IMG/VR virus record: IMGVR_UViG_3300024346_000045
Location: 1-64,000 of that record
DNA from: a virus
Reading direction: 5' to 3' (one strand)
Length of the DNA: 64,000 nucleotides
The notes beneath the pieces were generated by a model. That model worked only from the letters and a program-made list of their open reading frames with translations, was not told the DNA's origin and did not search any database. Below are positions 42,945 to 64,000 of this stretch, in pieces (the first letter of the stretch is position 1; each line of letters opens with the position of its first letter). A program made the translations under genes and the position numbers.

Positions 42945-43295
42945 GTGGATACAAAATTAGAAAAAGCATTTGAAATTGCCAATTATATGGCATCTCTTGC
43001 AGCCCAAAAATATATTCTCAAGGAAGAATATTGTCAAGCATTAATCTTTTATCATAATGGCGGTACATTTACTGCTACTCGAGAACTGATTAATTTTGTA
43101 AAAACACTAGTTGATTTAACTAATTCTGAGACATCAGTACTAGTTGACAATAATGATATTCCAATTGATATAGAAAACTTATCTCAATTTTTAGAGCTTG
43201 CCTTGTCAAAATATACGTTTGCAGTAAACGGATATTATACTAAGTACTCTCAACTAAGAAAAAGTAAATCTGTTGAAAGTTTAATGAGATTATGA
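42945..43295 (+). CDS. Conserved small protein of unknown function
   Basis: A 116-residue, mostly helical protein with YILKEEYCQALIFYHNGGTF and TRELINFVKTLVDLTN. I recall similar small proteins in aquatic T4-like phages, without a known role. The start is GTG: AGGAG lies 5 bases upstream and no ATG precedes the conserved part. It opens the accessory island and is controlled by the hairpin-embedded promoter. The stop overlaps the next start as ATGA. Confidence 0.65.
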   Translation: MDTKLEKAFEIANYMASLAAQKYILKEEYCQALIFYHNGGTFTATRELINFVKTLVDLTNSETSVLVDNNDIPIDIENLSQFLELALSKYTFAVNGYYTKYSQLRKSKSVESLMRL

Positions 43296-44113
43296 CTAAA
43301 GGAGTAGTGCTGTTTGCACACAATAACGAAGAAGTTGACTATATTAAGATAGCAACATATGCTGCTGATCGAATAAAATTATTTTTAAACGTCCCCGTCA
43401 CGCTAATTACTAACAGCACTGACTCTTCGTTAGCTAATAAATTTGATAATGTTATTGTTGTAAATACTTCGTCCCCATATACAAAATATTTTTATAACGG
43501 TTCACTAGCAGGAAAACATCTAACTTGGAATAATGTTTCTCGTGCCGACGTCTATGAATTAACTCCGTACACTGAAACATTGGTGATCGATGTTGATTAT
43601 ATAATTAACTCTAACATATTAGACTATTGCTGGAACCAACCCAGTGATTTTTTAATTTTCCAACGAAGTGTAGATTTAGCTCCCTGGCGAGATAATAGTG
43701 AATTTCTTAAAGTAAGCGAACATTCAATTCCTTTTTATTGGGCAACTGTTTTCTTTTTCAGAAAAACTTCACTAAACGAATTATTTTTTACATTAATTAA
43801 AGAAATTAGAAAAAACTGGAATTATTATACAACACTATACCAGATTCGTAGCACTAATTTTAGAAACGATTTAGCTTTTAGCATTGCTATTCACATGATG
43901 AACGGATTTAGCAGCGGGGTTTTTGCCAGCCATATTCCTGGTAAGTTGTTTTTTACAACTGATAGAGACTTGTTAATCGAATCGAACAACGGTTCGATGC
44001 ATTTTCTTTTAGAAAATGCAAACTCGACTGGCGGTTACATTTCTGTAAAAACTAATAATACAGACATTCATGTAATGAACAAATATAGTTTGATGGAATT
44101 AGTTAATGAGTAA
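43292..44113 (+). CDS. Glycosyltransferase-like protein (GT-A, DxD)
   Basis: A 273-residue protein. An N-terminal Rossmann-like region (GVVLFAHNNEEVDYIKIATY, VPVTLITNSTDSS) leads to ETLVIDVDYIINSN at about residues 90-103, where DVD fits the metal- and nucleotide-sugar-binding DxD of GT-A glycosyltransferases. A hydrophobic and aromatic C-terminal region includes FYWATVFFFRKTSLNELFF. It is a paralogue of the next gene (same order of motifs). Donor and acceptor are unknown; host-surface or virion glycosylation is the likely context. It overlaps both neighbours by a few bases. Confidence 0.68.
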   Translation: MTKGVVLFAHNNEEVDYIKIATYAADRIKLFLNVPVTLITNSTDSSLANKFDNVIVVNTSSPYTKYFYNGSLAGKHLTWNNVSRADVYELTPYTETLVIDVDYIINSNILDYCWNQPSDFLIFQRSVDLAPWRDNSEFLKVSEHSIPFYWATVFFFRKTSLNELFFTLIKEIRKNWNYYTTLYQIRSTNFRNDLAFSIAIHMMNGFSSGVFASHIPGKLFFTTDRDLLIESNNGSMHFLLENANSTGGYISVKTNNTDIHVMNKYSLMELVNE

Positions 44114-44930
44114 AGGGCATATATTTTTAGCACAAAACGGAAATGTTGATTATGTTCGGCAGGCATGTGCGTTGGCATTAAGTATTAAAAAATTTAATAC
44201 TATTAATGAAACTTGCATTGTTACAAATGATGTAATTCCTAAAGAATACGAACATGCATTTGATTATGTTGTTAATATACCGTGGACTGACTCTGCTAAA
44301 GACTCTTCTTGGAAAATAGAGAATCGTTGGAAGATTATTCATGCTTCGCCATTTAAAGAAAATTTAGTGTATGATACAGATATGCTCTTATTGAATTCTA
44401 ATGATCATTGGTGGCATTCATTTAAAGGTAAAAGTTTATCATTTACTACTAATGTGGTAGATTATAATGGTAAAATTATTACAGATGATTACTATCGAAA
44501 AGTCTTTACAGGAAATAATTTACCTAACATTTATACTGGTTGCTTTTATTTTAAAAAAGATGCAGTAGCATATGAGTTTTTTAAATGGTTGGAAGTAATT
44601 GTAAAAAATTGGACAGAAATTTATAAGAAACATTTAGATGTTAGTCCGCAAAAGTTTTTAAGTATCGATGTTAGTGCAGCATTGGCATACATTTATATGG
44701 ATAATACAGCTGATATTTCCATCAACCATTGCGTACCAACATTTACGCATATGAAACCAGCGATTCAGGGATGGAAAAATATACCATCTCTTTGGTCTAG
44801 TACAATTTATTCGAGTTTTAATAACGAATGTCAGTTAAAGGTTGGCGGAATGATGCAACAAGGGTTATTCCATTATGTTGAAGATGAGTTTTTGCAAGAG
44901 CATATGCTAAAAAAGTTAATGAGAAAATAA
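44106..44930 (+). CDS. Glycosyltransferase-like protein (GT-A, DxD)
   Basis: A 274-residue paralogue of the preceding gene. It has GHIFLAQNGNVDYVRQACAL, ETCIVTNDVIPKEYEHAFDY and ENLVYDTDMLLLNS with DTD as DxD candidate. A YTGCFYFKKDAVAYEFFKWL segment matches the FFFRK-like region of the paralogue, and THMKPAIQGWKN near the end could contribute acceptor or metal contacts. The last base of the stop overlaps the next ATG. It may add a second sugar in the same chain as its neighbour; this is inference. Confidence 0.68.
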   Translation: MSKGHIFLAQNGNVDYVRQACALALSIKKFNTINETCIVTNDVIPKEYEHAFDYVVNIPWTDSAKDSSWKIENRWKIIHASPFKENLVYDTDMLLLNSNDHWWHSFKGKSLSFTTNVVDYNGKIITDDYYRKVFTGNNLPNIYTGCFYFKKDAVAYEFFKWLEVIVKNWTEIYKKHLDVSPQKFLSIDVSAALAYIYMDNTADISINHCVPTFTHMKPAIQGWKNIPSLWSSTIYSSFNNECQLKVGGMMQQGLFHYVEDEFLQEHMLKKLMRK

Positions 44931-45478
44931 TGTCAGCACCTGTTATATATTCTACATCTTTCGTATATTATGATATCAATGGAAAATTGTACGGGTTAGG
45001 CAATGTACCCTCAACTGAATACAAAAATTTTGAAATTGATAACAGTTTAGTCGAAGATTTTTATCTATTAAAGAAGCAATTAACTAATTATAATATAGAA
45101 TATTTTTATAATATAAGTAAAGGCATTGATGAGCCCGAAGAAGAAATTAAATTAATTGATACGTCGTTGTCTTTACATATAATTGGCAGGACTATTGCTT
45201 ATAATAATGAAATAACAATAGAGCATAATTCTAAATGGGTTATACAAGTTAGGGAAGATGTTAAAGAAAAGCTCGATATTATTCCTAATTTAATATTTTT
45301 TGTATGTAAACCCGACGATCCGTACTTTTTATATAGACACTTTTCAGTTGATACGTCTTTATTAAAAGTACAACCGGTTGAAATTGATTTTCAACTTCCC
45401 ATAGAACATAATTTACAAATTATAAGTTTAGCTACAATAAGAAAATTTAACAGCTACGGCATAAAGGAGATAGCATGA
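44930..45478 (+). CDS. Unknown protein of the accessory island
   Basis: A 182-residue acidic protein beginning MSAPVIYSTSFVYYDINGKL. No motif, signal peptide or membrane helix is recognised. The C-terminal half is beta-rich (LIFFVCKPDDPYFLYRHFSV, then VEIDFQLPIEHNLQ). Overlaps with both neighbours (TAATG upstream, ATGA downstream) place it inside the glycosyltransferase operon, so it may be an accessory factor of those enzymes. Confidence 0.55.
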   Translation: MSAPVIYSTSFVYYDINGKLYGLGNVPSTEYKNFEIDNSLVEDFYLLKKQLTNYNIEYFYNISKGIDEPEEEIKLIDTSLSLHIIGRTIAYNNEITIEHNSKWVIQVREDVKEKLDIIPNLIFFVCKPDDPYFLYRHFSVDTSLLKVQPVEIDFQLPIEHNLQIISLATIRKFNSYGIKEIA

Positions 45479-46398
45479 GCCAGAAATTTAAAGTCACGGA
45501 TTGTGATGTAATATACCTAAGTTACGATGAACCCAATGCTGAAGAAAATTATGCAGATTTATTAACAAAGATTCCGTGGGCAAAACGTGTTCATGGTGTA
45601 GAAGGAAGTGACGCTGCTCATAAAGCGTGTGCTAGATTATCAGAAACAGAACGATTAGTGGTAATCGACGGTGACAATAAAATTCGTCCTGAATTTATTA
45701 GTCAAGAAATTGACTTTATCGACGAAGTAGATCTCTCTAAGAGTGTTATTAGTTGGGGCGCTCAGAATGTTATCAATAATCTAATCTACGGTAACGGTGG
45801 AATCAAGTCTTGGCCTAAGCAACTAGTTCTAGAAATGAAAACTCATGAGGCTGCTGAAGCTGACAATGCTAAAACTCAAGTAGATTTTTGTTGGGACATT
45901 AACTATATCCAGATGGATTTTTGTATGAGTTATGTGCATAACAATGCTACTGCTCAACAGGCATGGCGAGCAGGATTCCGCGAAGGTGTCAAGATGGGAT
46001 TACTTGAAGGCAGCAAGGCAGATCCTGCTACGTTTACAAAACAAGTACATTGGAAAAACTATCATAGGCTGCTAACATGGATGAATGTTGGTGCAGATGT
46101 AGTAAATGGTATGTATGCAATGTACGGTGCAAGACTAGGTTGTTTTATGACTAACTGTACTGATTGGGATTATTTGTTAGTTCGTGATTTTACATGGCTA
46201 AACGACCTATGGAACACTAAGGTGCATAAGATGTCTTTAGGTGACGTTGAAAGAGAATGTATCGAGTTAGCTCAGTATATGAATAAACATTTAGGATTAC
46301 CCGTTGGACGTTATCTAGATACTGAACAAAGTAAGTTTTTTAAAGAAGTTTATCGAAGCCCGCCGAGAATGCCTAATAATTTTATTGTTAAAAAATAA
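45475..46398 (+). CDS. Glycosyltransferase-like protein, DGD type
   Basis: A 307-residue protein with VIYLSYDEPNAEENYADLLT, AKRVHGVEGSDAAHKACARL and LVVIDGDNKIRPEF. The order (SYxEPNAEENW, RVHGV, helix, hydrophobic strand then DGD) is that of GT-A-fold nucleotide-sugar enzymes, with DGD as the metal site. A second conserved block is SWGAQNVINNLIYGNGGIKS. It is a paralogue of the next gene. The substrate is unknown. The start overlaps the previous stop as ATGA; a good AAGGAG precedes it. Confidence 0.66.
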   Translation: MSQKFKVTDCDVIYLSYDEPNAEENYADLLTKIPWAKRVHGVEGSDAAHKACARLSETERLVVIDGDNKIRPEFISQEIDFIDEVDLSKSVISWGAQNVINNLIYGNGGIKSWPKQLVLEMKTHEAAEADNAKTQVDFCWDINYIQMDFCMSYVHNNATAQQAWRAGFREGVKMGLLEGSKADPATFTKQVHWKNYHRLLTWMNVGADVVNGMYAMYGARLGCFMTNCTDWDYLLVRDFTWLNDLWNTKVHKMSLGDVERECIELAQYMNKHLGLPVGRYLDTEQSKFFKEVYRSPPRMPNNFIVKK

Positions 46399-47072
46399 TG
46401 TACGATATAGTATTCATTAGTTATCAGGAACCTAACGCAGAAGAAAACTGGATTCGTCTTAAAAGTCGTTTTCCTTTTGCTAAACGTGTGCATGGTGTTA
46501 AGGGAATCCATCAGGCACATATTACAGCAGCAAAAAAATGTTTTACGGATATGATTTGGATAGTCGACGGTGATGCAATTGTTTTAGATGAATTTAATTT
46601 CGATTATAAACCACATGATTTAGATTATGTGTTTGTTTGGCGAAGTCGAAATGCAGTTAACGATCTTGAATATGGAAACGGTGGCGTAAAACTTTTTCCA
46701 AAATTAAAAACAATCAATATGGATGTGTCTAAACCTGATATGACTACTAGTATTAGTACAAAGTTTAAAGCTGTTCAGGAAATTAGTAACATTAACAGTT
46801 TTAACACAGATCCTTTTAATACATGGAAAAGTGCTTTTAGAGAATGCTGTAAATTATCTAGTAAAGTTATTGATCGTCAAAAATCTGATGAAACAGACGA
46901 AAGATTACATGCTTGGTGTACAATTGGTACTGACAAACTATACGGTGAATATGCTATTAAGGGTGCTATTGCAGGCAAGGAATATGGACAATCTAACATT
47001 GGAAACATCGACGCACTAAAAAAGATAAATGATTTCGAATGGCTAAAAAATAAATTTAAGGAAATAACATGA
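46398..47072 (+). CDS. Glycosyltransferase-like protein, DGD type
   Basis: A 224-residue paralogue of the preceding protein, with VFISYQEPNAEENWIRLKSR, AKRVHGVKGIHQAHITAAKK, MIWIVDGDAIVLDEF and VWRSRNAVNDLEYGNGGVKL. It lacks about 80 residues of the C-terminal half of its paralogue but keeps the DGD and NAVNDLEYGNGG blocks, so it is probably functional. It overlaps the previous stop as TAATG and the next start as ATGA. Confidence 0.66.
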   Translation: MYDIVFISYQEPNAEENWIRLKSRFPFAKRVHGVKGIHQAHITAAKKCFTDMIWIVDGDAIVLDEFNFDYKPHDLDYVFVWRSRNAVNDLEYGNGGVKLFPKLKTINMDVSKPDMTTSISTKFKAVQEISNINSFNTDPFNTWKSAFRECCKLSSKVIDRQKSDETDERLHAWCTIGTDKLYGEYAIKGAIAGKEYGQSNIGNIDALKKINDFEWLKNKFKEIT

Positions 47073-47902
47073 GTGAAAATTCGAGTATTCGTGAGGTATT
47101 GTTTGGATTAGAAGAATATTTAAAATTTATTAGCAGTGTCGAAGATGTTGATCTAACTAGAGAAATAATCAAAATTTTAGATAGCGATGATATTCCGTCA
47201 GCATTATTAAATTATTATCTAAAAACAGTAGCAGAAAAAAACAAAGAAGATAAAATTTTTAGAAGTATTAATGATTATCGAAAAACACATGAAGACTATT
47301 CTGTTATTAAAGATGCAATGAGCCGTAGTCAAATTCGTAGCAAAATTTGGTTAATCGAAGAATTAAGTAAAATTAGAACTAAGTACGATAATGTTCTAGT
47401 AATGGCAGGATGGTTCGGTCAAATTAAATCAATTTACGATAAAAAATTAACATATTCTAAAATGAGAATTATTGAATTAGACCGAGTAGCTTGCGAACTA
47501 AGTGATTATTCTTTTAATCTTAGCAGTTTAGAAAATTATAAAGTAAAGAGCGTGAATGCAGATATAAACAATCTAACTTTGCATAAAAATGGATACGAGT
47601 GGCCTGTTGAAAATTTTAAAGAAGGCACAAGTTACGTTGAAAAGTTTTTACCAGATCTTATTATTAACACCAGTGCAGAACACATGTCTGAAGAATGGTT
47701 CCACCAGATTCGATTTAAAGAGATAGAGTCGAATCCAATAGTAGCTGTCCAAAGTAACAATATGTTTGAAGGCGATGGACATATAAATTGTGTATACAGT
47801 GCAGATCATATGAAAAAGAAATTTCCTATGAAGGAAGTTTTATTTGAAGGCGAACTTCAATTAAAAGGATATAAGCGTGTAATGCTTATAGGAAGACCAT
47901 GA
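47069..47902 (+). CDS. Class I SAM-dependent methyltransferase-like protein
   Basis: A 277-residue protein. After a helical N-terminus, NVLVMAGWFGQIKSIYDKK at about residues 109-127 looks like motif I (hydrophobic strand, then A-G-W-F-G). RIIELDRVACELSD gives the acidic residue after strand 2, and LIINTSAEHMSEEWF matches motif IV. This pattern recurs in phage methyltransferases of unknown substrate. Likely a methyl donor step of the island pathway. The gene overlaps both neighbours by 4 bases. Confidence 0.65.
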   Translation: MSENSSIREVLFGLEEYLKFISSVEDVDLTREIIKILDSDDIPSALLNYYLKTVAEKNKEDKIFRSINDYRKTHEDYSVIKDAMSRSQIRSKIWLIEELSKIRTKYDNVLVMAGWFGQIKSIYDKKLTYSKMRIIELDRVACELSDYSFNLSSLENYKVKSVNADINNLTLHKNGYEWPVENFKEGTSYVEKFLPDLIINTSAEHMSEEWFHQIRFKEIESNPIVAVQSNNMFEGDGHINCVYSADHMKKKFPMKEVLFEGELQLKGYKRVMLIGRP

Positions 47903-48120
47903 ATTTAGATGAATTAGATTTACGCACATTACAAAAAGAAGCAGCAAGAGCATTAAGTGTAATGGAAGCTACTAACAATAACATTTATAAGTATAATGTT
48001 CAAGCATACCATAATAGTCAAAATTGGTATAAAGCTGTTATTTTAGATTATGTTAAACAGCACGGTGATTTTCCTAGTAAAGTAGGGCCTGCTGCTAAAA
48101 TTAAATTGGTGCTAGAATAA
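47899..48120 (+). CDS. Small helical protein, unknown
   Basis: A 73-residue protein (MNLDELDLRTLQKEAARALS and WYKAVILDYVKQHGDFPSKV), all helix, no motif. It is squeezed between a methyltransferase-like and a radical-SAM gene with start and stop overlaps on both sides (ATGA, then TAATG), which argues that it is real and part of the operon. It could be a small partner or substrate-presenting protein for the radical-SAM enzymes; no direct evidence. Confidence 0.55.
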   Translation: MNLDELDLRTLQKEAARALSVMEATNNNIYKYNVQAYHNSQNWYKAVILDYVKQHGDFPSKVGPAAKIKLVLE

Positions 48121-49289
48121 TGTTATATCAATATAAAGACATCAGAGTAATTCATTTAGAAGTTACAGATAAATGTAATGCCGCATGTCCAATGTGTGCT
48201 AGAAATATTAACGGTGGAGAAGATAATCCTCAATTACCGAATACCGAATTATCAGTCAATGATGTTAAAAATATTTTTCCTATTGATTTTATAAAACAAC
48301 TAGATAGGTTGTATATGTGTGGTAATTTCGGTGATCCTATTGCTGCAAAAGACACATTAGAAATATTTCAATATTTTAGGCAACATAATCAACAAATGAC
48401 ACTTAGTTTACATACTAACGGAAGTGCCAAAACACCTGAGTGGTGGAAAAAATTAGCTTCGGTAATTGGAAAAAAAGGATATGTTATTTTTGGTATTGAT
48501 GGGTTAGAAGATACCAACCACTTGTATAGGCAAAATACAATATTTTCTAAAATTATAGAAAATGCACAAGCATTTATAGAAGCCGGTGGTAGAGCAAGAT
48601 GGGATTATATTGTCTTTGCACATAACGAACATCAAGTAGATGAAGCCGAGCAGCTAAGTAAAAAAATGAATTTTGAAAAATTTCAGTACAAGAAATCTGC
48701 TCGATTTTTTAGTAATGCAAGCGGCACTACAAAAGAAATGCACCAAGCCTCGAACAGAAAAGGTATAGAAACAACATTGTTGCAAGCACCGACAAATCCA
48801 AAATATAGGAATAATGCACTGCAAGAGATGAGCAAAATTGCTAGTTCGACTACAGTTAAAATGTTACCGAGCAAAGTTTCAGATCTTTCTTCGATACTAG
48901 GAGCCCAAACTTTTCATATTAATGAAAGCGAAAAGTCTCCAATGGAGAAAGTTTGGGATACTGCTGAAATTAAATGTAAAGTTGCAGAAGAAAAAAGTTT
49001 ATATATTTCTGCTGAAGGCGTTGTGCAACCGTGTTGTTGGACAGCTAATCAAATGTATGTATGGTACTGGAAACCTAGGAGTAGCCAAATTTGGAGCTAT
49101 ATTGATCAAGTAGGCATCGATAAATTAAATGCTAAAGTAACTCCGTTGCAAGAAATAGTCGACGGCTTATTTTTTAGCAATCTTATTCCGGATAGCTGGA
49201 ATAAATCAAGCTGTGCAGAAGGAAAACTTTCTGTATGTGCAAAAACTTGCGGAACTAAATATGATGCGTTTAAGGAACAATTCAAATGA
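48120..49289 (+). CDS. Radical SAM protein with C-terminal cysteine cluster
   Basis: A 389-residue radical SAM enzyme. The [4Fe-4S] motif CNAACPMC has Cys19, Cys23 and Cys26 in the CxxxCxxC spacing. The SAM-binding glycine region is represented by LYMCGNFGDPIAAKDTLEIF, where CGNFGDP replaces the usual GGEP. The C-terminal part has ISAEGVVQPCCWTAN and a CAEGKLSVCAKTCG cluster, consistent with a SPASM/twitch-like auxiliary cluster site. It is a paralogue of the next gene. The reaction is unknown; SPASM enzymes often act on peptides or sugars. Confidence 0.85.
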   Translation: MLYQYKDIRVIHLEVTDKCNAACPMCARNINGGEDNPQLPNTELSVNDVKNIFPIDFIKQLDRLYMCGNFGDPIAAKDTLEIFQYFRQHNQQMTLSLHTNGSAKTPEWWKKLASVIGKKGYVIFGIDGLEDTNHLYRQNTIFSKIIENAQAFIEAGGRARWDYIVFAHNEHQVDEAEQLSKKMNFEKFQYKKSARFFSNASGTTKEMHQASNRKGIETTLLQAPTNPKYRNNALQEMSKIASSTTVKMLPSKVSDLSSILGAQTFHINESEKSPMEKVWDTAEIKCKVAEEKSLYISAEGVVQPCCWTANQMYVWYWKPRSSQIWSYIDQVGIDKLNAKVTPLQEIVDGLFFSNLIPDSWNKSSCAEGKLSVCAKTCGTKYDAFKEQFK

Positions 49290-50365
49290 ATATTGAAGAT
49301 TTAAAAACCTTCGAACTTGAAATAACTAGCTTTTGTAATGCAGCATGTCCTGGATGTTTAAGAACACGCCACGAAGGAGGATATGATCTGCTTTCTCTAT
49401 CAATCGATGATGTGAAAAGAATCTTTCCAGATGAAAGGCATATTAAAGATAAACAATTTTTGCTTTGCGGAGCATTAGGTGATCCCGTAGCAAATAAAGA
49501 TTGTTATGCAATCTGTGAATACTTGATTAGTATGGGAGGCTATGCACTAATTAATAGTAATGCAAGTCTAGAAACTGAATCTTGGTGGAGAAAACTTGGA
49601 AAATTAAGTGCCGATACTAACAGATTGCAAGTTTGGTTTTGTGTCGACGGTTACGAAGCAACAAATTACATTTATAGAGTTAACACAAATTTTAATATTA
49701 TTAAAAGAAGCATGGCTGCTTATGCAGAAGGCGGCCAAGGAAAAGCCGGCGCATCTTGGATTTATATTATATTTGATCACAATGAGGGAGAAGTTGAACA
49801 AGCTAGAGCTCATGCAGAAAGTTTAGGATTTAAATTTGCTACTAGAACCGGTGCTGGAAACAGCATGACTAACTGGGTTTCACAAATAAGAAAAAGATCT
49901 AGCCAGACTAGAGAAGTTTATATTGAAAAAAAGGTAATTACTACTACAGGTGATAAAGAACATAGTAAAAAAGATTTAATAATGGAATTGAATAATTTCA
50001 TTAATTTCGATAAAAAAATTCTCGATACTGAAAAAACAGAAAAGATTGTTAAATCTATAAAGTGCAAATTTTATCATGAAGGTGAAATGTTTGTTGCTAG
50101 TAATCAAACATTATGGCCTTGTTGTTTTTTATGGAGTAATTCTATAAGAGCTCCTGAACTTTTTAAAGCCAGATTTTCAAAATACGACGAACACTGGAAT
50201 AGTTTAAAACATCATTCGATTGAAGAAATTATGAACCATCCGTGGTTTATTACTCTTTTAAAAGAAAGTTGGGATCCATTCAACGAAAATCATATTCCTA
50301 AATGTATACAAAACTGTGCTTATGATAAAGCACATCAAAATGAAATTAATTATGTCAACAAATAA
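49286..50365 (+). CDS. Radical SAM protein with C-terminal cysteine cluster
   Basis: A 359-residue paralogue of the preceding gene. CNAACPGC has Cys17, Cys21 and Cys24; LLCGALGDPVANKDCYAICE replaces the canonical GGEP region in the same way as in the paralogue. The C-terminal cluster reads VASNQTLWPCCFLWSN and CIQNCAYDKAH. The start overlaps the previous stop as ATGA. The pair differs from the other radical SAM genes of the island in having the iron-sulphur motif at the extreme N-terminus. Confidence 0.85.
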   Translation: MNIEDLKTFELEITSFCNAACPGCLRTRHEGGYDLLSLSIDDVKRIFPDERHIKDKQFLLCGALGDPVANKDCYAICEYLISMGGYALINSNASLETESWWRKLGKLSADTNRLQVWFCVDGYEATNYIYRVNTNFNIIKRSMAAYAEGGQGKAGASWIYIIFDHNEGEVEQARAHAESLGFKFATRTGAGNSMTNWVSQIRKRSSQTREVYIEKKVITTTGDKEHSKKDLIMELNNFINFDKKILDTEKTEKIVKSIKCKFYHEGEMFVASNQTLWPCCFLWSNSIRAPELFKARFSKYDEHWNSLKHHSIEEIMNHPWFITLLKESWDPFNENHIPKCIQNCAYDKAHQNEINYVNK

Positions 50366-56393: not shown

Positions 56394-56438
56394 AAATTGA
56401 TAACAAACTTTTAACAAATAATTTAGGAAAACTATAAT

Positions 56439-57554
56439 ATGGAATATAAACATCGTTGTCTGTTGCCATTTCATCATATAGCAATTAGACCAAATAATCA
56501 AGTTTATCCTTGTTGTCAGTTTAGGCACGAACACACTCCTAAAGATTTACATCTAGATTATTCTGATGTGTTTAATCATCCATTCATGGAAGAACTTCGA
56601 GAACATATGATAAAAGATATTCCGCATCCGGGATGTGATATGTGCTATAAGCAAGAAGAAATGAGTAACGGTTCGCACAGTATGCGATTAGATTTTGCAA
56701 AAGATCTAGGATTCGAAATACCTGACAAACCAGTTCTCACGCACGTCGACTTAGCATTAAGCAATGTATGTAATAATAGATGTAGGATGTGCAATCCGGA
56801 ATTAAGCACTAATTGGTACAGCGATGCTAAAAAATTAGGTGCTGAATTTTTTCCTCCTATACAATCAGGTATTATTAACAGCAAAAGAATTCTCGACGAG
56901 TATGATTTAAAGAGTTTGCGTTTTCTAAAATTAATCGGCGGTGAGCCATTAATGGAACAAGACAAATTCATTGATTTATTAAAAAGATGCGATTTACCTA
57001 AATTAAGAATATTACTAGCTACTAATACAACTATTATCCCAAAGCCGGAATTAGTTGAGTTGTTAAAACAATGCAAAGTAGTTTGGGTTAATTTAAGTGT
57101 TGATGCGTTCGGCCCTTTAAATGAATTCTTACGCAAAGGTAGTAAATGGGAAAATGTTACTAATGTAATTGAATGGTTTGGGAACACATTTCCGAGAAAT
57201 ACTAAAATTCACGGTATTATTTCAATATACAACATTAACAATTTTTATCTATTAGAAAATTATATACACACACATCCTACACTATGGAATAAAGTGTCAT
57301 GCGAATGGCAAATGGTAGACGGACCAAATTGGATGCAACCTGCTAATTTGCCTAAACCAGTTAAAGAAAAGATTATGAAAAAAATAGAAACGTTAGCTTC
57401 GCCTCATGCATATAACTTAGTAAGAACAGAATTAGAAAAAGAAGGCGACTTTAAATTGTTTTTAGATAAAGATAAAAAATTAAATGATCTTCGAAACGAG
57501 GATTGGAAAATGCTGAACACAGATCTGTGCGAAATGTTAACGGAGTTTCTTTAA
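56439..57554 (+). CDS. Twitch-domain radical SAM protein
   Basis: A 371-residue member of the twitch type. The N-terminus has HRCLLPFHHIAIRPNNQVYP with a CC pair, then GCDMCYKQEEMSNGSHSMR. The core motif CNNRCRMC follows VDLALSNV; FLKLIGGEPLMEQDKFIDLL carries GGEP; VNLSVDAFGPLNEFLRKGSK is the shared later block. It is shorter than the 50352 and 53913 proteins but complete. AGGAAAA precedes the ATG. It overlaps the next gene as TAATG. Confidence 0.86.
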   Translation: MEYKHRCLLPFHHIAIRPNNQVYPCCQFRHEHTPKDLHLDYSDVFNHPFMEELREHMIKDIPHPGCDMCYKQEEMSNGSHSMRLDFAKDLGFEIPDKPVLTHVDLALSNVCNNRCRMCNPELSTNWYSDAKKLGAEFFPPIQSGIINSKRILDEYDLKSLRFLKLIGGEPLMEQDKFIDLLKRCDLPKLRILLATNTTIIPKPELVELLKQCKVVWVNLSVDAFGPLNEFLRKGSKWENVTNVIEWFGNTFPRNTKIHGIISIYNINNFYLLENYIHTHPTLWNKVSCEWQMVDGPNWMQPANLPKPVKEKIMKKIETLASPHAYNLVRTELEKEGDFKLFLDKDKKLNDLRNEDWKMLNTDLCEMLTEFL

Positions 57555-58231
57555 TGAATATTCTGTGTCTTGGGTGCAGCTGGACTGCTGGCATCAATGC
57601 GCAGCCGTATAATTGGGTAGAAGCGCTGGCTAAAATAACTCCTGAACATACATTTTATAATTTTGCTTTATGCGGTAGTAGCCTACTACATAGTATATGG
57701 ATTCTTGAAACAACGTTAAAACAGCAATGGGATATAATAAAAATTGGAAAGATTGATAAAGTTATTTTTCAAGTCACAAACGAAGGGCGATTAACATATT
57801 ATAAAAATCTCGATAACGTTAGACTAGCAGATTACGTAGAAAAATCAAAAACTATTTCTAATTATAATATATTAAATTTGCCTTGGCAACAAATATGTCA
57901 ACTTAATTACGGAGTTTTACATCCAGAAAATGCGTCTATTCACCACAGTAGTTGGAATGAAATATACAAATTTGCTACAGACTACTATTCTAAATTAACT
58001 AGACATCAGCATTTTGATATTGAACATAAAGCATTAGTAGAATATGCAAGATCACATTCTGATTTTATGTTTTTACATAGACGCGACGATATAGGAATTC
58101 CTCAGATAGATTCTATACAAGATATTTTAGGTGATGACCAATTTAATAATTTTGTTATTGATAACGGCGGCCATTTTAATATTTTAGGAGCAAACTGGCA
58201 AGCTTCTTATATTAAGAGTTTGCTATTATGA
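57554..58231 (+). CDS. SGNH/GDSL-hydrolase-like protein
   Basis: A 225-residue protein. MNILCLGCSWTAGINAQPYN holds block I (GCS in place of GDS). FYNFALCGSSLLHSIW gives the block II Gly, VIFQVTNEGRLTYY resembles block III, and a C-terminal DNGGHFNILGANWQ supplies the Asp-x-x-x-His catalytic pair. SGNH enzymes are esterases or acyltransferases, often acting on sugar acetyl groups. ATG at 57554 overlaps the previous stop and begins directly with block I. It converges with the minus-strand gene that follows. Confidence 0.7.
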   Translation: MNILCLGCSWTAGINAQPYNWVEALAKITPEHTFYNFALCGSSLLHSIWILETTLKQQWDIIKIGKIDKVIFQVTNEGRLTYYKNLDNVRLADYVEKSKTISNYNILNLPWQQICQLNYGVLHPENASIHHSSWNEIYKFATDYYSKLTRHQHFDIEHKALVEYARSHSDFMFLHRRDDIGIPQIDSIQDILGDDQFNNFVIDNGGHFNILGANWQASYIKSLLL

Positions 58232-58945
58232 GTTGTAAATAGTCATATTAAAATACGAGGTTACTGGTTTTGTTGGGTTTACAAACTTCTTTGTATCAAA
58301 AAACATATTTCCAGTTCTTACCCAATCTGCAATCATAGAAGAAAATATTAAATTATTTTCTTGATTTAAATGGCAATGTCTTATATCAGCCCATGGCCAT
58401 TTATCACTTTTTAAATTGTAGTAATCTATATCCATCTGAGAAATGTGACCTAAAGTAAAAGTTGAGTTCCAACCTTCTTCACCTGTAACATAAAAGCAAG
58501 GAATTAACAAAGCATCGGGTCTAATATTTCTTATTTCTTTTATTAATAATTTGTGAAATAATAAGTCTCTTTCTGGACATGCTATGTATTTGTAATAATC
58601 TTCAACAGCGTTATTAACTTTATTTAAATATGCATTTGATTTATACTGCGATTCGACAACATCTCGTATACCATGGTATCCATTTACATGTTGTAGTGGA
58701 GGATCACAATTCATATATTCTTCAGGTAATGGAAGTAAAATTCTTCCAGGACCAGTTACTAAAAAAACAATTTTTTCAAATTTACCATGATGTTTTAAAA
58801 ATTCATTATAGCTGTAGTGCAAAGAGCTTCCATTAACTCCGTAGGAAACTGTTGGATATTGATCGTTTAAGTATTGGTGCCACGGTCTACCTATACCATG
58901 ATCGTGACTTGCTGCGTAGCTATCTCCAAAGACTGCTATTTTCAT
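58226..58945 (-). CDS. SGNH/GDSL-hydrolase-like protein, minus strand
   Basis: A 239-residue protein with block I KIAVFGDSYAASHDHG, GVNGSSLHYSYNEFL (block II), IVFLVTGPGRILLP (block III region) and a C-terminal DIRHCHLNQENN as the Asp/His block. It is the only complete gene of the island on the minus strand and converges with another SGNH-like gene by a 6-base overlap. An AGGGGAG ribosome site lies just upstream of the ATG at 58945. A -10-like TATAAT occurs on the minus strand near 58970 but has no good -35. Confidence 0.7.
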   Translation of the reverse strand: MKIAVFGDSYAASHDHGIGRPWHQYLNDQYPTVSYGVNGSSLHYSYNEFLKHHGKFEKIVFLVTGPGRILLPLPEEYMNCDPPLQHVNGYHGIRDVVESQYKSNAYLNKVNNAVEDYYKYIACPERDLLFHKLLIKEIRNIRPDALLIPCFYVTGEEGWNSTFTLGHISQMDIDYYNLKSDKWPWADIRHCHLNQENNLIFSSMIADWVRTGNMFFDTKKFVNPTKPVTSYFNMTIYNS

Positions 58946-58982
58946 AAGCTCCCCTAATAAATTATATGATAAGATCTCTGTT

Positions 58983-58990: not shown

Positions 58991-59008
58991 TATCTGTTCG
59001 GAGTATTT

Positions 59009-59569
59009 ATGAAAATTTTAATCACAGGAAATTGTGAATACGGTTTAGCCAAAGAGTTATTTAAAATTTACCCAACTGCTACATTTTTATCTCGTAAAAC
59101 AGGCGTAGATTTAACTTCTATCGACGGACAAATTAAGTGTGCAGAATTAGTGTTAGAACATGATGTATTTGTTAATTCGTCAGCTCTTTGGAAATTTAAC
59201 CAGACAGTATTATTAGATCAAGTGTACAAATTATGTGTTGAAAAAAATCATAGTCCTCATATTATTTCTGTTGGGTCTACTACTGATAGAGTTAAGAACG
59301 GTAAGGCTTGGCTATATAATGCTGAAAAAAAGGCCCTTCGAGACTATTCTAATACACTAGCATTATCGGGTGTTTGGGGAGAAACTCCTAAGGTAACATA
59401 TATTAGTTTTGGAACTCTTACTAATAATCAACATAAACATATAGGTAGAAAGTGCATGGATATTTCCCTAGCAGCTGAATATATTAAATGGGTTATAGAA
59501 CAACCGAGACACATTAATATTAATGAAATAAGTATAGACCCGATGCAAGGAAAAAACTGGAATGAGTGA
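59009..59569 (+). CDS. Short-chain dehydrogenase/epimerase-like protein
   Basis: A 186-residue small Rossmann protein. MKILITGNCEYGLAKELFK carries a degenerate TGxxxGxG. VFVNSSALWKFNQTVLLDQV takes the place of the NAG strand, IISVGSTTD gives the Ser, and WLYNAEKKALRDYSN contains YxxxK. Residues and order fit the short-chain dehydrogenase/reductase superfamily; it is shorter than usual (about 250). It may oxidise or epimerise a sugar or a small molecule of the island pathway. It follows an exact late promoter and overlaps the next gene. Confidence 0.65.
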   Translation: MKILITGNCEYGLAKELFKIYPTATFLSRKTGVDLTSIDGQIKCAELVLEHDVFVNSSALWKFNQTVLLDQVYKLCVEKNHSPHIISVGSTTDRVKNGKAWLYNAEKKALRDYSNTLALSGVWGETPKVTYISFGTLTNNQHKHIGRKCMDISLAAEYIKWVIEQPRHININEISIDPMQGKNWNE

Positions 59570-60734
59570 TTTAAGTTGGAGTGCGTACGATTTTACAAAA
59601 ATACCATATGACGATATTGTGCGTGTAGGGCAACGTACATTGTTGTACAGAGATTTGTTTACTGTAAGTTGGTTACTAGGCAGATTTTGTAATTATAGAT
59701 GTAGTTATTGTTGGCCTTATGCACGTAGTGACAGTAAGGATCATAGACCTACTGAACTATGTTTAAAAACAATTGACGAAATTAAAAGACAGGCTAGAGA
59801 ACGTAATTTTAATAGTTTTCATTTTAGTCTAAGTGGAGGTGAACCGACTTTTCATCCCGGGTACACAGACATTTTAGAATATCTCAATAATGATGTAGAA
59901 AATACAAATTACACTAGTGTTCATATGACAAGCAATATGAGCCGATCATTAAAGTGGTTTGAAGAAAAATATTGTCCTGCGGTTAGTAAATTTCATCGAG
60001 CTAGTATTACTGCAAGTTTACACACCGAGCATGTTGATACAAAAGAAAAAATGCAAGACTTTGCAGATAAACTTATATTGTGTCAGCAACATGATGTTCA
60101 GGTAACGATCAATATGGTTATGGTTCCAGAATGGTTTGATAGAGATTTTGATAATGCATTGTTCTTCCATAATCAAGGAATTAATGTTACATTGAAGCCG
60201 CAAAGCGATCCCACTGCCAGTCGAGTAGTTGATGGTTATACTCCTGAAATGCTAAAGAGGTTGCATAACGGTATGCCTCAACGTGCGTTCACAGAAGACA
60301 AAGCTAAACGTACTATGTTAGTAAAACGTCCTGAGCCTAGATTTTATAAAACACCCGATCCTATCTATCAAGATGCCCAAGCTAAAATTCCTCAACACTT
60401 TCAAGTAGAGTTTAGAGACAAAGAGCACAAGATTTGGTACATGGATCAAGCGGAAAGATTTAATGCATTTAACTTTAACAAGTTTAAAGGATGGGAATGT
60501 TCTAGTGGTTATAGAGGAATAATTATTAGAGAACCTGACGGTAGTGTAAAACGTAGTTACAGTTGTAGTGATGTTCCTCTGGGAAACATCGAAACTGGAT
60601 TTCAACTATTTGACGGTCCTAAACCCTGTATTAGTGAAAGCTGTGTAAGTTCAGCAGACAGTAAGATTCCTAAGAGAGCTCCGGGGACTAAATTACCTTT
60701 ATGGCCAGGAGATAAAACTTTTGAAAAAATTTAA
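59562..60734 (+). CDS. Radical SAM protein with fused C-terminal cysteine domain
   Basis: A 390-residue radical SAM protein. CNYRCSYC follows FTVSWLLGRF; FSLSGGEPTFHPGYTDILE carries GGEP; MTSNMSRSLKWFEEKYCPAV and ASITASLHTEHVDT are later core strands. The C-terminal half has FKGWECSSGYRGIIIREPDG, then cysteines in KRSYSCSDVPLG, PCISESCVSS, fitting a SPASM-like auxiliary site. It is the one-chain form of the split pair at 55207 and 55917. It overlaps its upstream neighbour by 8 bases. Confidence 0.85.
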   Translation: MSDLSWSAYDFTKIPYDDIVRVGQRTLLYRDLFTVSWLLGRFCNYRCSYCWPYARSDSKDHRPTELCLKTIDEIKRQARERNFNSFHFSLSGGEPTFHPGYTDILEYLNNDVENTNYTSVHMTSNMSRSLKWFEEKYCPAVSKFHRASITASLHTEHVDTKEKMQDFADKLILCQQHDVQVTINMVMVPEWFDRDFDNALFFHNQGINVTLKPQSDPTASRVVDGYTPEMLKRLHNGMPQRAFTEDKAKRTMLVKRPEPRFYKTPDPIYQDAQAKIPQHFQVEFRDKEHKIWYMDQAERFNAFNFNKFKGWECSSGYRGIIIREPDGSVKRSYSCSDVPLGNIETGFQLFDGPKPCISESCVSSADSKIPKRAPGTKLPLWPGDKTFEKI

Positions 60735-61371
60735 TAATAGGCTAGATATTCCTGGAATGACTTTTCCTAGGGAGCTCGATATATTATCTAATATTGCAAG
60801 TTTAGTTCCCGAAGGAGGAAAAATATTAGAAATTGGATCTTGCTTTGGCAGAAGCGCTCATGCATTATATACAGGAAAAAAAGAAACTGTAAAACTAACT
60901 TGTTTAGATTTATGGGGAGATACTATACCTTTTCCTGAAAATTCTTATCACGGAAGCAAAGAATTACTTAATGATGCAATTAATATTTCTTTTGAAAGAC
61001 AAAATTCTAGATATGGATTCGAATACATATTAGGTAGCGAAATTATTAATGATATAGAAATAATACAAGATTCCAGTTCTAATTTAAAAGACTTTAATTT
61101 TGATTTAGTTTTTATAGACGGAGATCATAACTATAGTAGTGTATCGACTGATATAAACAACTTTGTTTTTAATTCTAATACTTTAATTTTAGGTGATGAT
61201 GCTAATCAGTCTAATTGGGACGTAATAAAAGCAATATGGGATAATAAAAGAAACAGAACGCTAATAGTTCCTAGCGGACAAGATGTTAAATTTTTTGCAC
61301 TAATACCGCCTAACGGTTATTGGGTTGACCATTCAAACAGCATATTAGAGATATTAAGATATGAATTTTAA
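60721..61371 (+). CDS. Class I SAM-dependent methyltransferase
   Basis: A 216-residue protein. GGKILEIGSCFGRSAHAL is motif I (E-x-G-x-x-x-G), LTCLDLWGDT gives the acidic residue after strand 2, and FDLVFIDGDHNYSSVSTDI is the IDGDHxY block of the CmcI/TylF-like methyltransferases that modify sugars and small molecules. TTG at 60721 is chosen because AGGAGA lies 8 bases upstream; ATG at 60757 is an alternative that would still keep motif I. It overlaps genes at both ends. Confidence 0.8.
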   Translation: MKKFNNRLDIPGMTFPRELDILSNIASLVPEGGKILEIGSCFGRSAHALYTGKKETVKLTCLDLWGDTIPFPENSYHGSKELLNDAINISFERQNSRYGFEYILGSEIINDIEIIQDSSSNLKDFNFDLVFIDGDHNYSSVSTDINNFVFNSNTLILGDDANQSNWDVIKAIWDNKRNRTLIVPSGQDVKFFALIPPNGYWVDHSNSILEILRYEF

Positions 61372-61951
61372 GTTAACTTCTTTTGATCGCCTTCTTAAAA
61401 TAAATGTTGATTTTGATATTGAAAGAAATGAGTTAATATCTCTTATTGAAAAAGAAACGACATGGGAACATCACGGTACTCGGTCTTATTTGCAAACAGT
61501 TCAAAATAACAGTCTTAATTCGATAAGAAATCACTTAATGAGTAATACAATTACATTGATGTTGTTAGAGGAAATTTATAAGTTACACCCTCAATTAAAA
61601 GAGCAATGGGGATTAACATTTACAGAAATGTATAATAAATCTTTAACCAATGTTTATTTTTGTAGAGATATGCCCGGGCACAATACCGGGTTACACTTAG
61701 ATGCACTCAGATTGCCTTTTACAGGAATGATATTTTTAACTGAAAAAGATGATGAATTAATGTCTACTTATTTTTATACAGATAGCAATAAAAATAATTC
61801 ATTTAGAATGACAACAAATTACGGGGACGGATGGTTTCAAGCTAACTCGCACAATTCGTGGCATGAGGGCGGAAACAATACAGATATAGTTAGGTATGCT
61901 ATCATAATAGAAATTAATCCTAATTGGGAAAATAATAATTCTAGGAATTAA
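61361..61951 (+). CDS. 2-oxoglutarate/Fe(II) dioxygenase-like protein
   Basis: A 196-residue protein with HNTGLHLDALRLPFTGMIFL, where His112 and Asp114 form HxD, and NSHNSWHEGGNNTDIVRYAI, where His168 is the distal ligand and Arg178 the likely 2-oxoglutarate anchor. The spacing fits a small double-stranded beta-helix hydroxylase. Such enzymes hydroxylate peptides, lipids or small molecules. It overlaps the methyltransferase gene by 11 bases. The substrate is unknown; the assignment rests on motif pattern alone. Confidence 0.6.
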   Translation: MNFKLTSFDRLLKINVDFDIERNELISLIEKETTWEHHGTRSYLQTVQNNSLNSIRNHLMSNTITLMLLEEIYKLHPQLKEQWGLTFTEMYNKSLTNVYFCRDMPGHNTGLHLDALRLPFTGMIFLTEKDDELMSTYFYTDSNKNNSFRMTTNYGDGWFQANSHNSWHEGGNNTDIVRYAIIIEINPNWENNNSRN

Positions 61952-61953
61952 AA

Positions 61954-62658
61954 ATGAAAATTGATTTTTTCGGTCACAGTATTTGCGGAAGAAGGACTAA
62001 TCTTGACCGTCCTAAAACCTTCGCTGATATAATAGTTGAACAATATCAAGCATCTAATAGATGGTTTGGATTTGGAAACGGTTCAGAAGAAAGAATTTTA
62101 TATTATTTGAAAAAAGCTGAAACTCCTAACATTGCTATTATCTTTCATAGCGATCCTGCATTTTTCTTTACTCCGTCGTTGTCGTGTGACTATCATAGAT
62201 TAAATGAACACGATTTAAAAGAAAAATTTATCTACGCATTACCTAAATTTTATCCTAATCGAAAAATAGATAAAATATTTGTAGAGAATGAAGCTTATGA
62301 AGAAATAGATGCAGAAGTTGCTAGAACAGCATTTTTAAACTATTACGATTTTTTTACAACACCTGAAGTTAATAAAAATAGATTTTATGGTGCGTTAATA
62401 CAGATTGATCAATATTGTACACATAAAAAAATTCCAGTTATACATTGTCCTAAATCTCCGACTCATATACCTTCTTGGTTTAAATTTACTAGCGGAATAG
62501 TTGACTATGAATTAGGATTGAGTCAGAATGATAATCATCCTTTTAGGGCTTCTTATGGAAAATCTGATAATGCTGTAACAAAAGAAGGTAATGAACAAAT
62601 TGCAAAAAAGTTAATCGAATATATTGATCAACTATTAATTTCAAAGGATAAAAAATGA
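61954..62658 (+). CDS. SGNH-hydrolase-like protein
   Basis: A 234-residue protein starting MKIDFFGHSICGRRTNLDRP (GHS in the place of GDS). GFGNGSEERILYYLKK could be block II, IAIIFHSDPAFFFTPS block III, and NDNHPFRASYGKSDNAVTKE a C-terminal Asp/His block. Similar MKIDFFGHS proteins occur in aquatic phages and are usually labelled SGNH/GDSL family (from memory). It is a tandem paralogue of the next gene. It starts 2 bases after the oxygenase stop. Confidence 0.6.
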   Translation: MKIDFFGHSICGRRTNLDRPKTFADIIVEQYQASNRWFGFGNGSEERILYYLKKAETPNIAIIFHSDPAFFFTPSLSCDYHRLNEHDLKEKFIYALPKFYPNRKIDKIFVENEAYEEIDAEVARTAFLNYYDFFTTPEVNKNRFYGALIQIDQYCTHKKIPVIHCPKSPTHIPSWFKFTSGIVDYELGLSQNDNHPFRASYGKSDNAVTKEGNEQIAKKLIEYIDQLLISKDKK

Positions 62659-63362
62659 AAATTGATTTTTTCGGACATAGTATTTGCGGAAAACGATCAG
62701 GTCCTGATCGTCCTAAGACATTTGTCGATATGCTTGTAGAGCATTATCAAGCGGGCAATCAATGGATAGGCTTTGCTAACTGTTCAGAAGAACGTCTCTT
62801 ATATACTATGAAAAAAACTAAAGACATAGACGTTGCAATTATTTTTCATAGCGATCCTTCTTTTATCTACACTCCTAGCTTTGAATGCGATTATCATAGA
62901 CTAAGCGAACAGCAGCTAAATGAAAAATTTATCTATGATGTTCCAAAATTTCATCCAGAATGGAAGAAAGATAATTTGTTTGCACAAAACGACGAGCGAA
63001 TTGAGCTAGATGAGGAAACTGCAAAAAACGCATTCTTGACTTATTACAATTATTTTACAACTCCGGAAGTTAACAGAAATAGGCACTACGGAGCATTAAT
63101 TCAAATTGATCAACTATGTGCAGCAAAAAACATAAAAGTTATACACTGTCCTAAATCAAGAAAAGATATACCTCAATGGTTTAAATTTACTACAGGATTA
63201 GTTGATTGGGACATAGCAAGTATGCAAAATGATGGTAGTAAGTATTCTGTATCTTATAATAAAGTAGACAATGCTATTTCAGAAGAAGGAAACAGAATAA
63301 TTTATGAAAAATTTGTAAAGTATATTGATCAGCTAGTTAACCAATCAACTAACAACGGGTGA
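62655..63362 (+). CDS. SGNH-hydrolase-like protein, tandem paralogue
   Basis: A 235-residue protein with the same order of motifs as its neighbour (MKIDFFGHSICGKRSGPDRP, GFANCSEERLLYTMKK, VAIIFHSDPSFIYTPS, CPKSRKDIPQWFKFTTGLVD). At the C-terminal Asp/His block it has NDGSKYSVSYNKVDNAIS, so the His seen in NDNHPF is missing. If that His is catalytic, this copy would be inactive or have changed activity. AAGGA precedes the ATG. It converges with a minus-strand radical SAM gene and overlaps it by 34 bases. Confidence 0.6.
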   Translation: MKIDFFGHSICGKRSGPDRPKTFVDMLVEHYQAGNQWIGFANCSEERLLYTMKKTKDIDVAIIFHSDPSFIYTPSFECDYHRLSEQQLNEKFIYDVPKFHPEWKKDNLFAQNDERIELDEETAKNAFLTYYNYFTTPEVNRNRHYGALIQIDQLCAAKNIKVIHCPKSRKDIPQWFKFTTGLVDWDIASMQNDGSKYSVSYNKVDNAISEEGNRIIYEKFVKYIDQLVNQSTNNG

Positions 63363-64000
63363 AGATAATCTTTAAAATTTTGATTTCTTGATAAATCAAA
63401 ATAGCCTATCTCTTTTAACATCAACTCTTTGTTTTCTTGATTGTCACTAATAGCGTTATCAATTTGTTGAATTAAATTTTGAATCTTATGATCAACATCG
63501 CCTCGTTCATTATATAAAAATGGTAAAACGTTTTCCTTAGCAACAGATAAAATGCTAATAGGTAAACGTTTTATACTAGTTCCTCGATCTAATCCGTATG
63601 CTTCAGAAAAAGTTATAGAACTTTTATTCCAGATAGATCTTATCCATTTTATATATTCAGGAATAACTAATAGATTTAACGATGTTAATACTAGTGCAAC
63701 TCTAAAAAAATCTACAGATTTTATCTTTGAAAAATAATTCCTTAAGGTTAAATCTAACTCTTCGAAGTTTGCAGGATACCTAATATAATCATAAGTTTTA
63801 CCAAACCCGTCTATACTAAAATTATGAACATTTTTCTTAAAGTGGTTTAATTTTTCAATTATCTCGTCGTTAATTAATGTTCCATTGGTATGGAAAGTTA
63901 ATATGGTATTTTTTGCATTGCCTGTTTCTATGTATCGATCAATTAATTTAACAACTTTTTTATCATAGAATGGCTCGCCACCACTGGCCTTTATAACTTT
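63329..64000 (-). CDS. Radical SAM protein, C-terminal part (partial)
   Basis: The minus strand is open from the window end to a TGA at 63329-63331. The first visible residues, KVIKASGGEPFYDKKVVKLI, contain the SAM-binding GGEP; ILTFHTNGTLINDEIIEKL and NFSIDGFGKTYDYIRYPANF are later core strands, close to the DGxxxxYxYIRxP block of the twitch-type proteins nearby. The iron-sulphur motif lies beyond the window. The 3' end overlaps the plus-strand SGNH-like gene by 34 bases. 223 residues are visible. Confidence 0.75.
   Translation of the reverse strand, partial: KVIKASGGEPFYDKKVVKLIDRYIETGNAKNTILTFHTNGTLINDEIIEKLNHFKKNVHNFSIDGFGKTYDYIRYPANFEELDLTLRNYFSKIKSVDFFRVALVLTSLNLLVIPEYIKWIRSIWNKSSITFSEAYGLDRGTSIKRLPISILSVAKENVLPFLYNERGDVDHKIQNLIQQIDNAISDNQENKELMLKEIGYFDLSRNQNFKDYLHPLLVDWLTS

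What the first reader, a model, noticed from the sequence alone, without database searches (positions are those of the whole stretch)
42945..64000. Island of nine radical-SAM proteins with glycosyltransferase-like, PP-loop, SGNH, methyltransferase and oxygenase genes in a phage
Directly after the tail-fibre operon there are about 21 kb of overlapping genes: radical SAM proteins at 48120, 49286, 50352, 51751, 53913, 55207 (with 55917), 56439, 59562 and 63329 (minus), each with CxxxCxxC and/or GGE motifs. With them are two pairs of DxD glycosyltransferase-like proteins, two methyltransferase-like proteins, a PP-loop ATPase, four SGNH-like proteins, a dehydrogenase-like and a 2OG-oxygenase-like protein. 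Phages normally carry zero to two radical SAM genes; nine from at least three subtypes suggest a dedicated multistep pathway. Position next to the fibres and sugar-type enzymes suggest decoration of fibre proteins or the host envelope; a peptide natural product or a modified nucleobase cannot be excluded.
Basis: partly seen in the sequence, partly recalled or inferred. Interest (0 to 1): 0.78.

Follow-up and report, generated by a model that had tools for sequence, protein, structure and literature searches.

The report
Radical-SAM gene island in giant phages
A 21-kb block beside the tail-fibre genes of an uncultured giant phage encodes nine radical-SAM enzymes; three of them form a fixed core that recurs in hundreds of aquatic virus contigs and on chromosomes of Bdellovibrio-like bacteria, and the block probably builds an unusual sugar-based decoration whose product is unknown.

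Summary
Nine intact radical-SAM genes (eight above Pfam's cut-off, one below) lie in one mostly gene-overlapping, same-strand block directly after the tail fibres of a fragment of a jumbo T4-like phage. They are not nine equal parts of one pathway. Three (RS1 48120, RS3 50352, RS8 59562) form an invariant core. RS1 is in 114 of 117 RS3-bearing virus loci, and exactly one RS8 is in 20 of 20 RS3-bearing virus records tested. The trio also co-occurs on Bdellovibrionota chromosomes (22, 20 and 21 of 369 genomes, nearly the same genomes). Two GT-A-like proteins, an MTase-like protein and a conserved 73-aa protein accompany it. The other rSAMs, a QueC-like PP-loop protein and an SDR are a semi-conserved, shuffled second tier. 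The trailing SGNH, MTase and oxygenase genes are peculiar to this phage. No cultured phage searched has it. On bacterial chromosomes the trio often lies near bona fide glycan genes. With no membrane protein and a late-gene position, I favour a cytoplasmic glycan-type modification of tail proteins (confidence 0.4), ahead of host-envelope glycan change, a small molecule or a DNA base. Earlier papers noted rSAM-rich marine phages; the core, its spread and its cellular counterpart appear new.

The parts
40167..41840 (+). TF6, tail-fibre-like virion protein, left neighbour of the cassette
   Evidence: PHROG tail-fibre / virion structural hits; 34-47% homologues upstream of the cassette in relatives
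41853..42875 (+). TF7, Ser/Thr-rich, probably beta-structured protein next to g01/GT1a; candidate substrate
   Evidence: alignment A11; found in 8 of 9 virus records and 1 of 23 bacterial genomes searched
42945..43295 (+). g01, small conserved partner of TF7
   Evidence: alignment A10
43292..44113 (+). GT1a, GT8/glycogenin-like glycosyltransferase
   Evidence: profile A7 vs PDB, glycogenin E 2e-4
44106..44930 (+). GT1b, GT8-like, paired with GT1a
   Evidence: same profile; phrog_1903
44930..45478 (+). g04, conserved protein of unknown function between the GT pairs
   Evidence: homologues in 8 viral loci; same position in L158
45475..46398 (+). GT2a, GT-A-like protein with invariant D65, D67, N68 (DGDN)
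   Evidence: alignment A3; model pLDDT 87; weak GT-A fold hits, E ~1e-4, TM ~0.3
46398..47072 (+). GT2b, paralogue of GT2a
   Evidence: homologue in 78 of 79 g08-seeded loci
47069..47902 (+). MT1, class I methyltransferase-like protein
   Evidence: alignment A8; no significant PDB hit; 78 of 79 g08-seeded loci
47899..48120 (+). g08, conserved 73-aa protein
   Evidence: alignment A2, conserved over its whole length; 436 viral contigs
48120..49289 (+). RS1, core radical SAM with C-terminal cysteines
   Evidence: PF04055; in 114/117 RS3-bearing loci
49286..50365 (+). RS2, radical SAM, second tier
   Evidence: PF04055 sub-threshold 21.6 bits; CNAACPGC
50352..51761 (+). RS3, core N-terminal-twitch radical SAM
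   Evidence: NF033640 432.7 bits; 197 viral contigs
51751..53082 (+). RS4, N-twitch radical SAM, second tier
   Evidence: NF033640 205.4 bits
53075..53920 (+). QueC-like PP-loop ATPase
   Evidence: AF2 model pLDDT 86; Foldseek top hits QueC 2pg3 and 3bl5; invariant SGGADS and C226, C255, C258, C261
53913..55223 (+). RS5, N-twitch radical SAM, second tier
   Evidence: NF033640 383.1 bits
55207..55920 (+). RS6, radical SAM domain half
   Evidence: PF04055 46.4 bits; fused with RS6b in bacteria
55917..56393 (+). RS6b, detached C-terminal cysteine domain of RS6
56439..57554 (+). RS7, N-twitch radical SAM, second tier
   Evidence: NF033640 220.2 bits
57554..58231 (+). SG1, SGNH-like by motif, accessory
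   Evidence: no SGNH family hit; in 1 of 41 relatives
58226..58945 (-). SG2, SGNH-like by motif, accessory
   Evidence: no family hit; in 2 of 41 relatives
59009..59569 (+). SDR-type oxidoreductase (YNAEK)
   Evidence: profile A9 vs PDB SDR, E 0.0016
59562..60734 (+). RS8, core radical SAM with C-terminal four-cysteine region
   Evidence: PF04055 55 bits; exactly one in 20/20 viral records; 257 viral contigs
60721..61371 (+). MT2, methyltransferase PF13578, accessory
   Evidence: 0 of 41 relatives
61361..61951 (+). OX, 2OG-oxygenase-like by HxD...H motif only, accessory
   Evidence: no family hit; 0 of 41 relatives
61954..63362 (+). SG3 and SG4 (two genes), SGNH-like by motif, accessory
   Evidence: no Pfam hit; 0 of 41 relatives
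63329..64000 (-). RS9, radical SAM (continues to 64570 of the record), accessory
   Evidence: PF04055; whole ORF 413 aa

Best explanation
The island is a late-expressed biosynthetic locus of a clade of aquatic jumbo T4-like phages. An invariant trio of radical-SAM enzymes (RS1, RS3, RS8) makes an unusual building block, most likely a radically modified sugar or sugar-linked unit. The GT-A and GT8-like proteins transfer it, and a shuffled second tier (further rSAMs, QueC-like amide/nitrile-forming enzyme, SDR, methyltransferases, SGNH) gives it strain-specific decorations, much as O-antigen loci vary around constant genes. Because no membrane protein is present and the genes continue the tail-fibre gene series, the acceptor is most likely a cytoplasmic virion protein, TF7 first. 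Shown: the genes, the core, co-inheritance, order, fold classes and glycan neighbours in bacteria. Inferred: late expression, sugar chemistry, the acceptor and TF7 as target.
For: Same cassette order in relatives found with three seeds. RS1 in 114/117 RS3 loci; exactly one RS8 in 20/20 RS3-bearing records. In 369 Bdellovibrionota genomes RS8, RS3, RS1 occur in 22, 20, 21; all RS3 and 20 of 21 RS1 genomes lie in the RS8 set (hypergeometric p < 1e-28 ignoring kinship). Near the bacterial trio: Glycos_transf_2 genes in eight loci, and Polysacc_synt_2, epimerase, GT group 1, asparagine synthase, acyltransferase-3 in two. GT1 matches glycogenin, GT2a a GT-A fold. No transmembrane segment predicted. 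On one bacterial contig with rnhB-rplS-trmD-rimM-pheST-like genes, RS3 and RS8 are followed by TF7-g01-GT1a-GT1b-g04-GT2a in phage order.
Against: No substrate, product or expression is known. The GT2a match is weak (TM ~0.3). Tail adjacency may only mark a hypervariable region where any cargo lands. TF7 is present in only one of 23 bacterial genomes searched. No nucleotide-sugar synthesis genes lie in the cassette. The GT-neighbour frequency in bacteria was not compared with a random background. The late position is inferred from gene order only.
Confidence: 0.4

Rival explanations
1. The locus alters the host surface glycan (LPS/capsule) during infection, for example to exclude other phages, using host lipid carriers and flippases.
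For: Glycan genes beside the trio on Bdellovibrionota chromosomes; GT8 enzymes in pelagimyophage host-recognition clusters were read this way (PMC7029224).
Against: No membrane protein, flippase or polymerase in the island; position within the presumed late tail-gene series rather than among early genes.
Confidence: 0.22
2. The locus makes a small molecule or cofactor, possibly a modified peptide (RiPP-like), with g08 as precursor or carrier.
For: SPASM/twitch rSAMs are typical RiPP and cofactor enzymes (general knowledge); g08 is a conserved 73-aa protein just before RS1 in most loci.
Against: g08 is conserved over its whole length with no variable core and no copy was found at Bdellovibrionota trio loci, where no small ORF is conserved near the trio either; the GT pairs need an acceptor.
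Confidence: 0.17
3. The locus modifies phage DNA bases, for example 7-deazaguanine or hypermodified pyrimidines.
For: QueC-like PP-loop protein, GTs, rSAMs and a nearby ThyX recall DNA-modification gene sets.
Against: No QueD, GTP-cyclohydrolase or DpdA-type gene recognised in the cassette; the PP-loop is not universal (17 of 41 relatives) and no close PP-loop relative lies at Bdellovibrionota trio loci; genes follow tail genes, not replication genes.
Confidence: 0.08
4. Unrelated accessory metabolic genes gathered in a hypervariable region, with no joint function.
For: Second-tier and tail genes vary strongly between relatives.
Against: The trio, GT2, MT1 and g08 are constant in order and presence, and the trio co-occurs across a bacterial phylum.
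Confidence: 0.08

Closest known systems
Host-recognition cluster of pelagimyophages (PMC7029224)
   Different: That paper names the cassettes in passing, with no conserved core or cellular counterpart; this phage's baseplate hub protein is closest to PA5oct-type jumbo phages
T4-like environmental genome TARA_ERS488813_N000010 with 12 radical SAM genes (PMC5332604)
   Same: Many rSAM genes in one marine T4-like virus
   Different: Discussed only as Fe-S protein load; identity with this cassette was not tested
NF033640 N-terminal twitch radical SAM family
   Same: RS3, RS4, RS5, RS7 score above its cut-off
   Different: To my knowledge a family without an assigned reaction; RS1, RS2, RS6, RS8 are outside it
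QueC (7-cyano-7-deazaguanine synthase) and CBASS Cap9
   Same: PP-loop fold, SGGxDS and four invariant cysteines; best PDB fold hits
   Different: No significant QueC profile match (Pfam QueC 1 of 17 members, E 0.24); no deazaguanine pathway genes seen beside it
O-antigen / protein-glycosylation loci
   Same: Constant core with variable sugar-tailoring genes; on bacterial chromosomes the trio adjoins such genes in some genomes
   Different: No nucleotide-sugar dehydratase, flippase or polymerase in the phage copy

Membership tests
Radical SAM superfamily | PF04055 match and CxxxCxxC cluster motif in each of nine proteins | tested here: met
   8 of 9 above the curated cut-off; motif intact in all nine; RS2 is sub-threshold
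NF033640 N-terminal twitch rSAM | score above 170 bits | tested here: met
   RS3 432.7, RS5 383.1, RS7 220.2, RS4 205.4 bits; not met by RS1, RS2, RS6, RS8; RS9 not scanned
QueC | QueC fold with PP-loop and four-cysteine site | tested here: met
QueC | significant QueC profile match | tested here: not met
   Pfam QueC in 1 of 17 members, E 0.24; so QueC-like, not filed as QueC
Glycosyltransferase (GT-A / GT8) | fold or profile match to a nucleotide-sugar transferase and a DxD-type motif | tested here: inconclusive
   GT1: glycogenin E 2e-4, invariant D100, D102; GT2a: weak GT-A fold hits, invariant D65, D67
RiPP biosynthetic cluster | precursor gene with leader and variable core beside the rSAM genes | tested here: not met
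   g08 conserved throughout; no shared small ORF near bacterial trios
7-deazaguanine DNA modification | QueD/FolE/DpdA-type genes with QueC | not tested
   none recognised among island ORFs, but no dedicated search of whole viral genomes was run
O-antigen / glycan locus | bona fide sugar-nucleotide and GT genes in the same locus | tested here: inconclusive
   present beside the trio in several bacterial loci; sugar-nucleotide genes absent in the phage cassette

The most novel reading that the evidence does not exclude
A previously unrecognised pathway, built on an obligate trio of radical-SAM enzymes and shared by Bdellovibrionota and aquatic jumbo phages, makes a new class of glycoconjugate that phages attach to their tail proteins, with interchangeable rSAM tailoring modules acting as a host-range or receptor code.
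Probability: 0.25. Interest if true: 0.88.

Novelty: new variant of a known kind. Interest (0 to 1): 0.7.

Why it matters
Radical-SAM genes are repeatedly reported as abundant in aquatic viruses and listed as miscellaneous or haem-related auxiliary genes without a function. A fixed three-enzyme core with a cellular counterpart turns this into a testable biochemical question. If the product decorates tail proteins, it would be a radical-chemistry virion modification and a plausible source of host-range variation in abundant uncultured giant phages.

Tried and rejected
PDB profile searches of RS3 gave nothing and those of RS1 and RS8 nothing specific; MT1 has no significant PDB hit. Cultured phages: no match for RS8, PP-loop, GT2a, GT1b or g01; only distant rSAM matches (21-28%) for RS3 and RS1. 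g08 as a classical RiPP precursor rejected by its uniform conservation. Treating all nine rSAMs as one pathway rejected: the window tail is not conserved. TF7 as a general bacterial partner of the trio not supported (1 of 23 genomes). Reading some virus-like contigs in MAG bins (L127, L128, L139, L140) as cellular rejected as unsafe. Of RS8-seeded loci only 38 of 80 show RS3 within 10 kb; I ascribe this to the wide RS3-RS8 spacing and contig ends, since whole RS3-bearing records have RS8 in 20 of 20, but the converse was not run on whole records. Four literature searches combining rSAM or virion glycosylation with tail fibre or jumbo phage found nothing relevant.
Full report
WHAT IS THERE. The window is bases 1-64000 of a 71,775-base IMG/VR virus record. 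Its gp46-like and gp5-like proteins match PA5oct-type jumbo phages at 48% and 34%, and its baseplate wedge protein is shared at 39-76% with 15 of 20 other cassette-bearing records; 8 of those 20 have a gp23-type capsid match. This is thus most likely a fragment of an uncultured aquatic jumbo T4-like phage. Directly after the tail-fibre genes (PHROG tail hits) comes a same-strand block in which most genes overlap by 1-17 bases. Eight rSAM proteins pass Pfam's cut-off, a ninth (49286) is sub-threshold but has the cluster motif. Subtypes: four N-terminal twitch rSAMs (NF033640), SPASM-maturase-like RS1/RS2, and viperin/MoaA-like RS6 and RS8. RS6 and RS6b are halves of one protein that is fused in bacteria.

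THE CONSERVED CORE. Searches of viral contigs with the PP-loop protein, RS3, RS8 and g08 found 37, 197, 257 and 436 contigs. The order is constant: [TF6-TF7-g01-GT1a-GT1b-g04]-GT2a-GT2b-MT1-g08-RS1-...-RS3-...-RS8. In 117 RS3- or PP-loop-seeded loci RS1 is in 114, GT2 in 105, g08 in 102 (some contigs are duplicated between the two sets). RS3 and RS8 are highly conserved (about 82% and 80% mean identity among viruses, against 63% for RS1). All 20 RS3-bearing records tested have exactly one RS8. With g08 as an independent seed, RS1 lies downstream in 66 of 70 and GT2b/MT1 are in 78 of 79. Between RS1, RS3 and RS8 the content is shuffled: in 41 well-covered relatives RS2 is in 25, RS6 26, SDR 22, RS5 18, RS4, RS7 and PP-loop 17 each, whereas MT2, OX, SG3 and SG4 are in none. 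Records with the core carry 9-22 rSAM domains.

A CELLULAR COUNTERPART. A genome scan with RS3 found orthologues at about 60% on Bdellovibrionota contigs of up to 936 kb, with RS1 and RS8 beside it in most. In 369 genomes of the phylum RS8, RS3 and RS1 are in 22, 20 and 21; all RS3 genomes and 20 of the 21 RS1 genomes lie within the RS8 set (p < 1e-28 ignoring kinship). In the RS3 tree the viruses form a tight group within the bacterial diversity, with genome G088 the nearest Bdellovibrionota branch (the outgroup is very distant, so direction is unsure). On G088's contig, RS3 and RS8 follow rnhB-rplS-trmD-rimM-pheST-like genes (recognised by eye) and are followed by TF7-g01-GT1a-GT1b-g04-GT2a in phage order. 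Near other bacterial trios lie Glycos_transf_2 genes (eight loci) and, in L136 and L154, epimerases, Polysacc_synt_2, GT group 1, asparagine synthase and acyltransferase-3.

ENZYME CLASSES. GT1a/b: GT8/glycogenin-like. GT2a: model pLDDT 87 with weak GT-A hits. PP-loop: model pLDDT 86, best fold hits QueC, four invariant cysteines, but no QueC profile match; amide or nitrile formation on a carboxylate is inferred from QueC. SDR by profile. No island protein has a convincing membrane segment (hydropathy only, highest 19-residue mean 1.78 in RS9).

MECHANISM. Best reading: a cytoplasmic, late-made pathway whose rSAM trio builds an unusual sugar-type unit that GTs place on a virion protein, varied by interchangeable tailoring enzymes. 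The core and its co-inheritance are shown; sugar chemistry rests on GT classes and bacterial neighbours; the tail-protein target rests on gene position, absence of membrane proteins and TF7 linkage, and is the weakest step. Host-envelope change, a small molecule and DNA modification remain rivals. A classical RiPP is unlikely: g08 has no variable core and bacterial trios share no small ORF.

COMPARISON AND NOVELTY. rSAM-rich marine T4-like phages were noted before (12 genes in one genome, PMC5332604; rSAM cassettes in the pelagimyophage host-recognition cluster, PMC7029224; rSAM enrichment in Tasman Sea viromes, PMC7150976). A Baltic study reports 261 'ahbD' viral genes and calls inferences about their function speculative (PMC9301287); RS1 scores weakly to that model, so some may be of this kind (untested). 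I found no description of the invariant trio, its cellular counterpart or a function. I file it as a new variant of a known kind (phage tail-adjacent decoration loci) until a product is known.

Noticed in passing
window 17867-32371: A single 4834-aa open reading frame upstream of the tail fibres, possibly analogous to the VrlC gene of pelagimyophages.
   Followed up: no
record of L125 (G009), 71.7 kb: 22 radical-SAM domains in one 71.7-kb virus record, far denser than the window.
   Followed up: partly
L158 (G088:C21:120500-139884): Bacterial contig with a phage-ordered TF7-g01-GT1a-GT1b-g04-GT2a segment next to RS3/RS8; possible intermediate between cellular and viral loci, or an old phage insertion.
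   Followed up: partly
window 47069-47902 and alignment A8: Longer MT1 homologues carry N-terminal repeats of a motif like LRKAVxExNLHSIFRL, absent from the window copy.
   Followed up: no
L009:2704-3378 minus (record 64704-65378): Canonical ThyX with RHRx7SxR lies just right of the island; a ThyX homologue is also present in 30 of 80 RS8-seeded loci.
   Followed up: partly
L139, L140 (MAG contigs labelled Acidimicrobiaceae and Chloroflexi): rSAM-dense contigs with RS3 at about 52% and a PP-loop at 28%; they look viral and form a long separate branch in the RS3 tree.
   Followed up: partly
L135 and L138: Minimal trio RS8-RS3-RS1 next to a prepilin-like protein and a Glycos_transf_2-type gene; a pilin-type substrate in bacteria is conceivable.
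   Followed up: no
Baltic Sea study PMC9301287: 261 viral 'ahbD' haem AMGs may include RS1-type proteins misassigned to haem synthesis.
   Followed up: no
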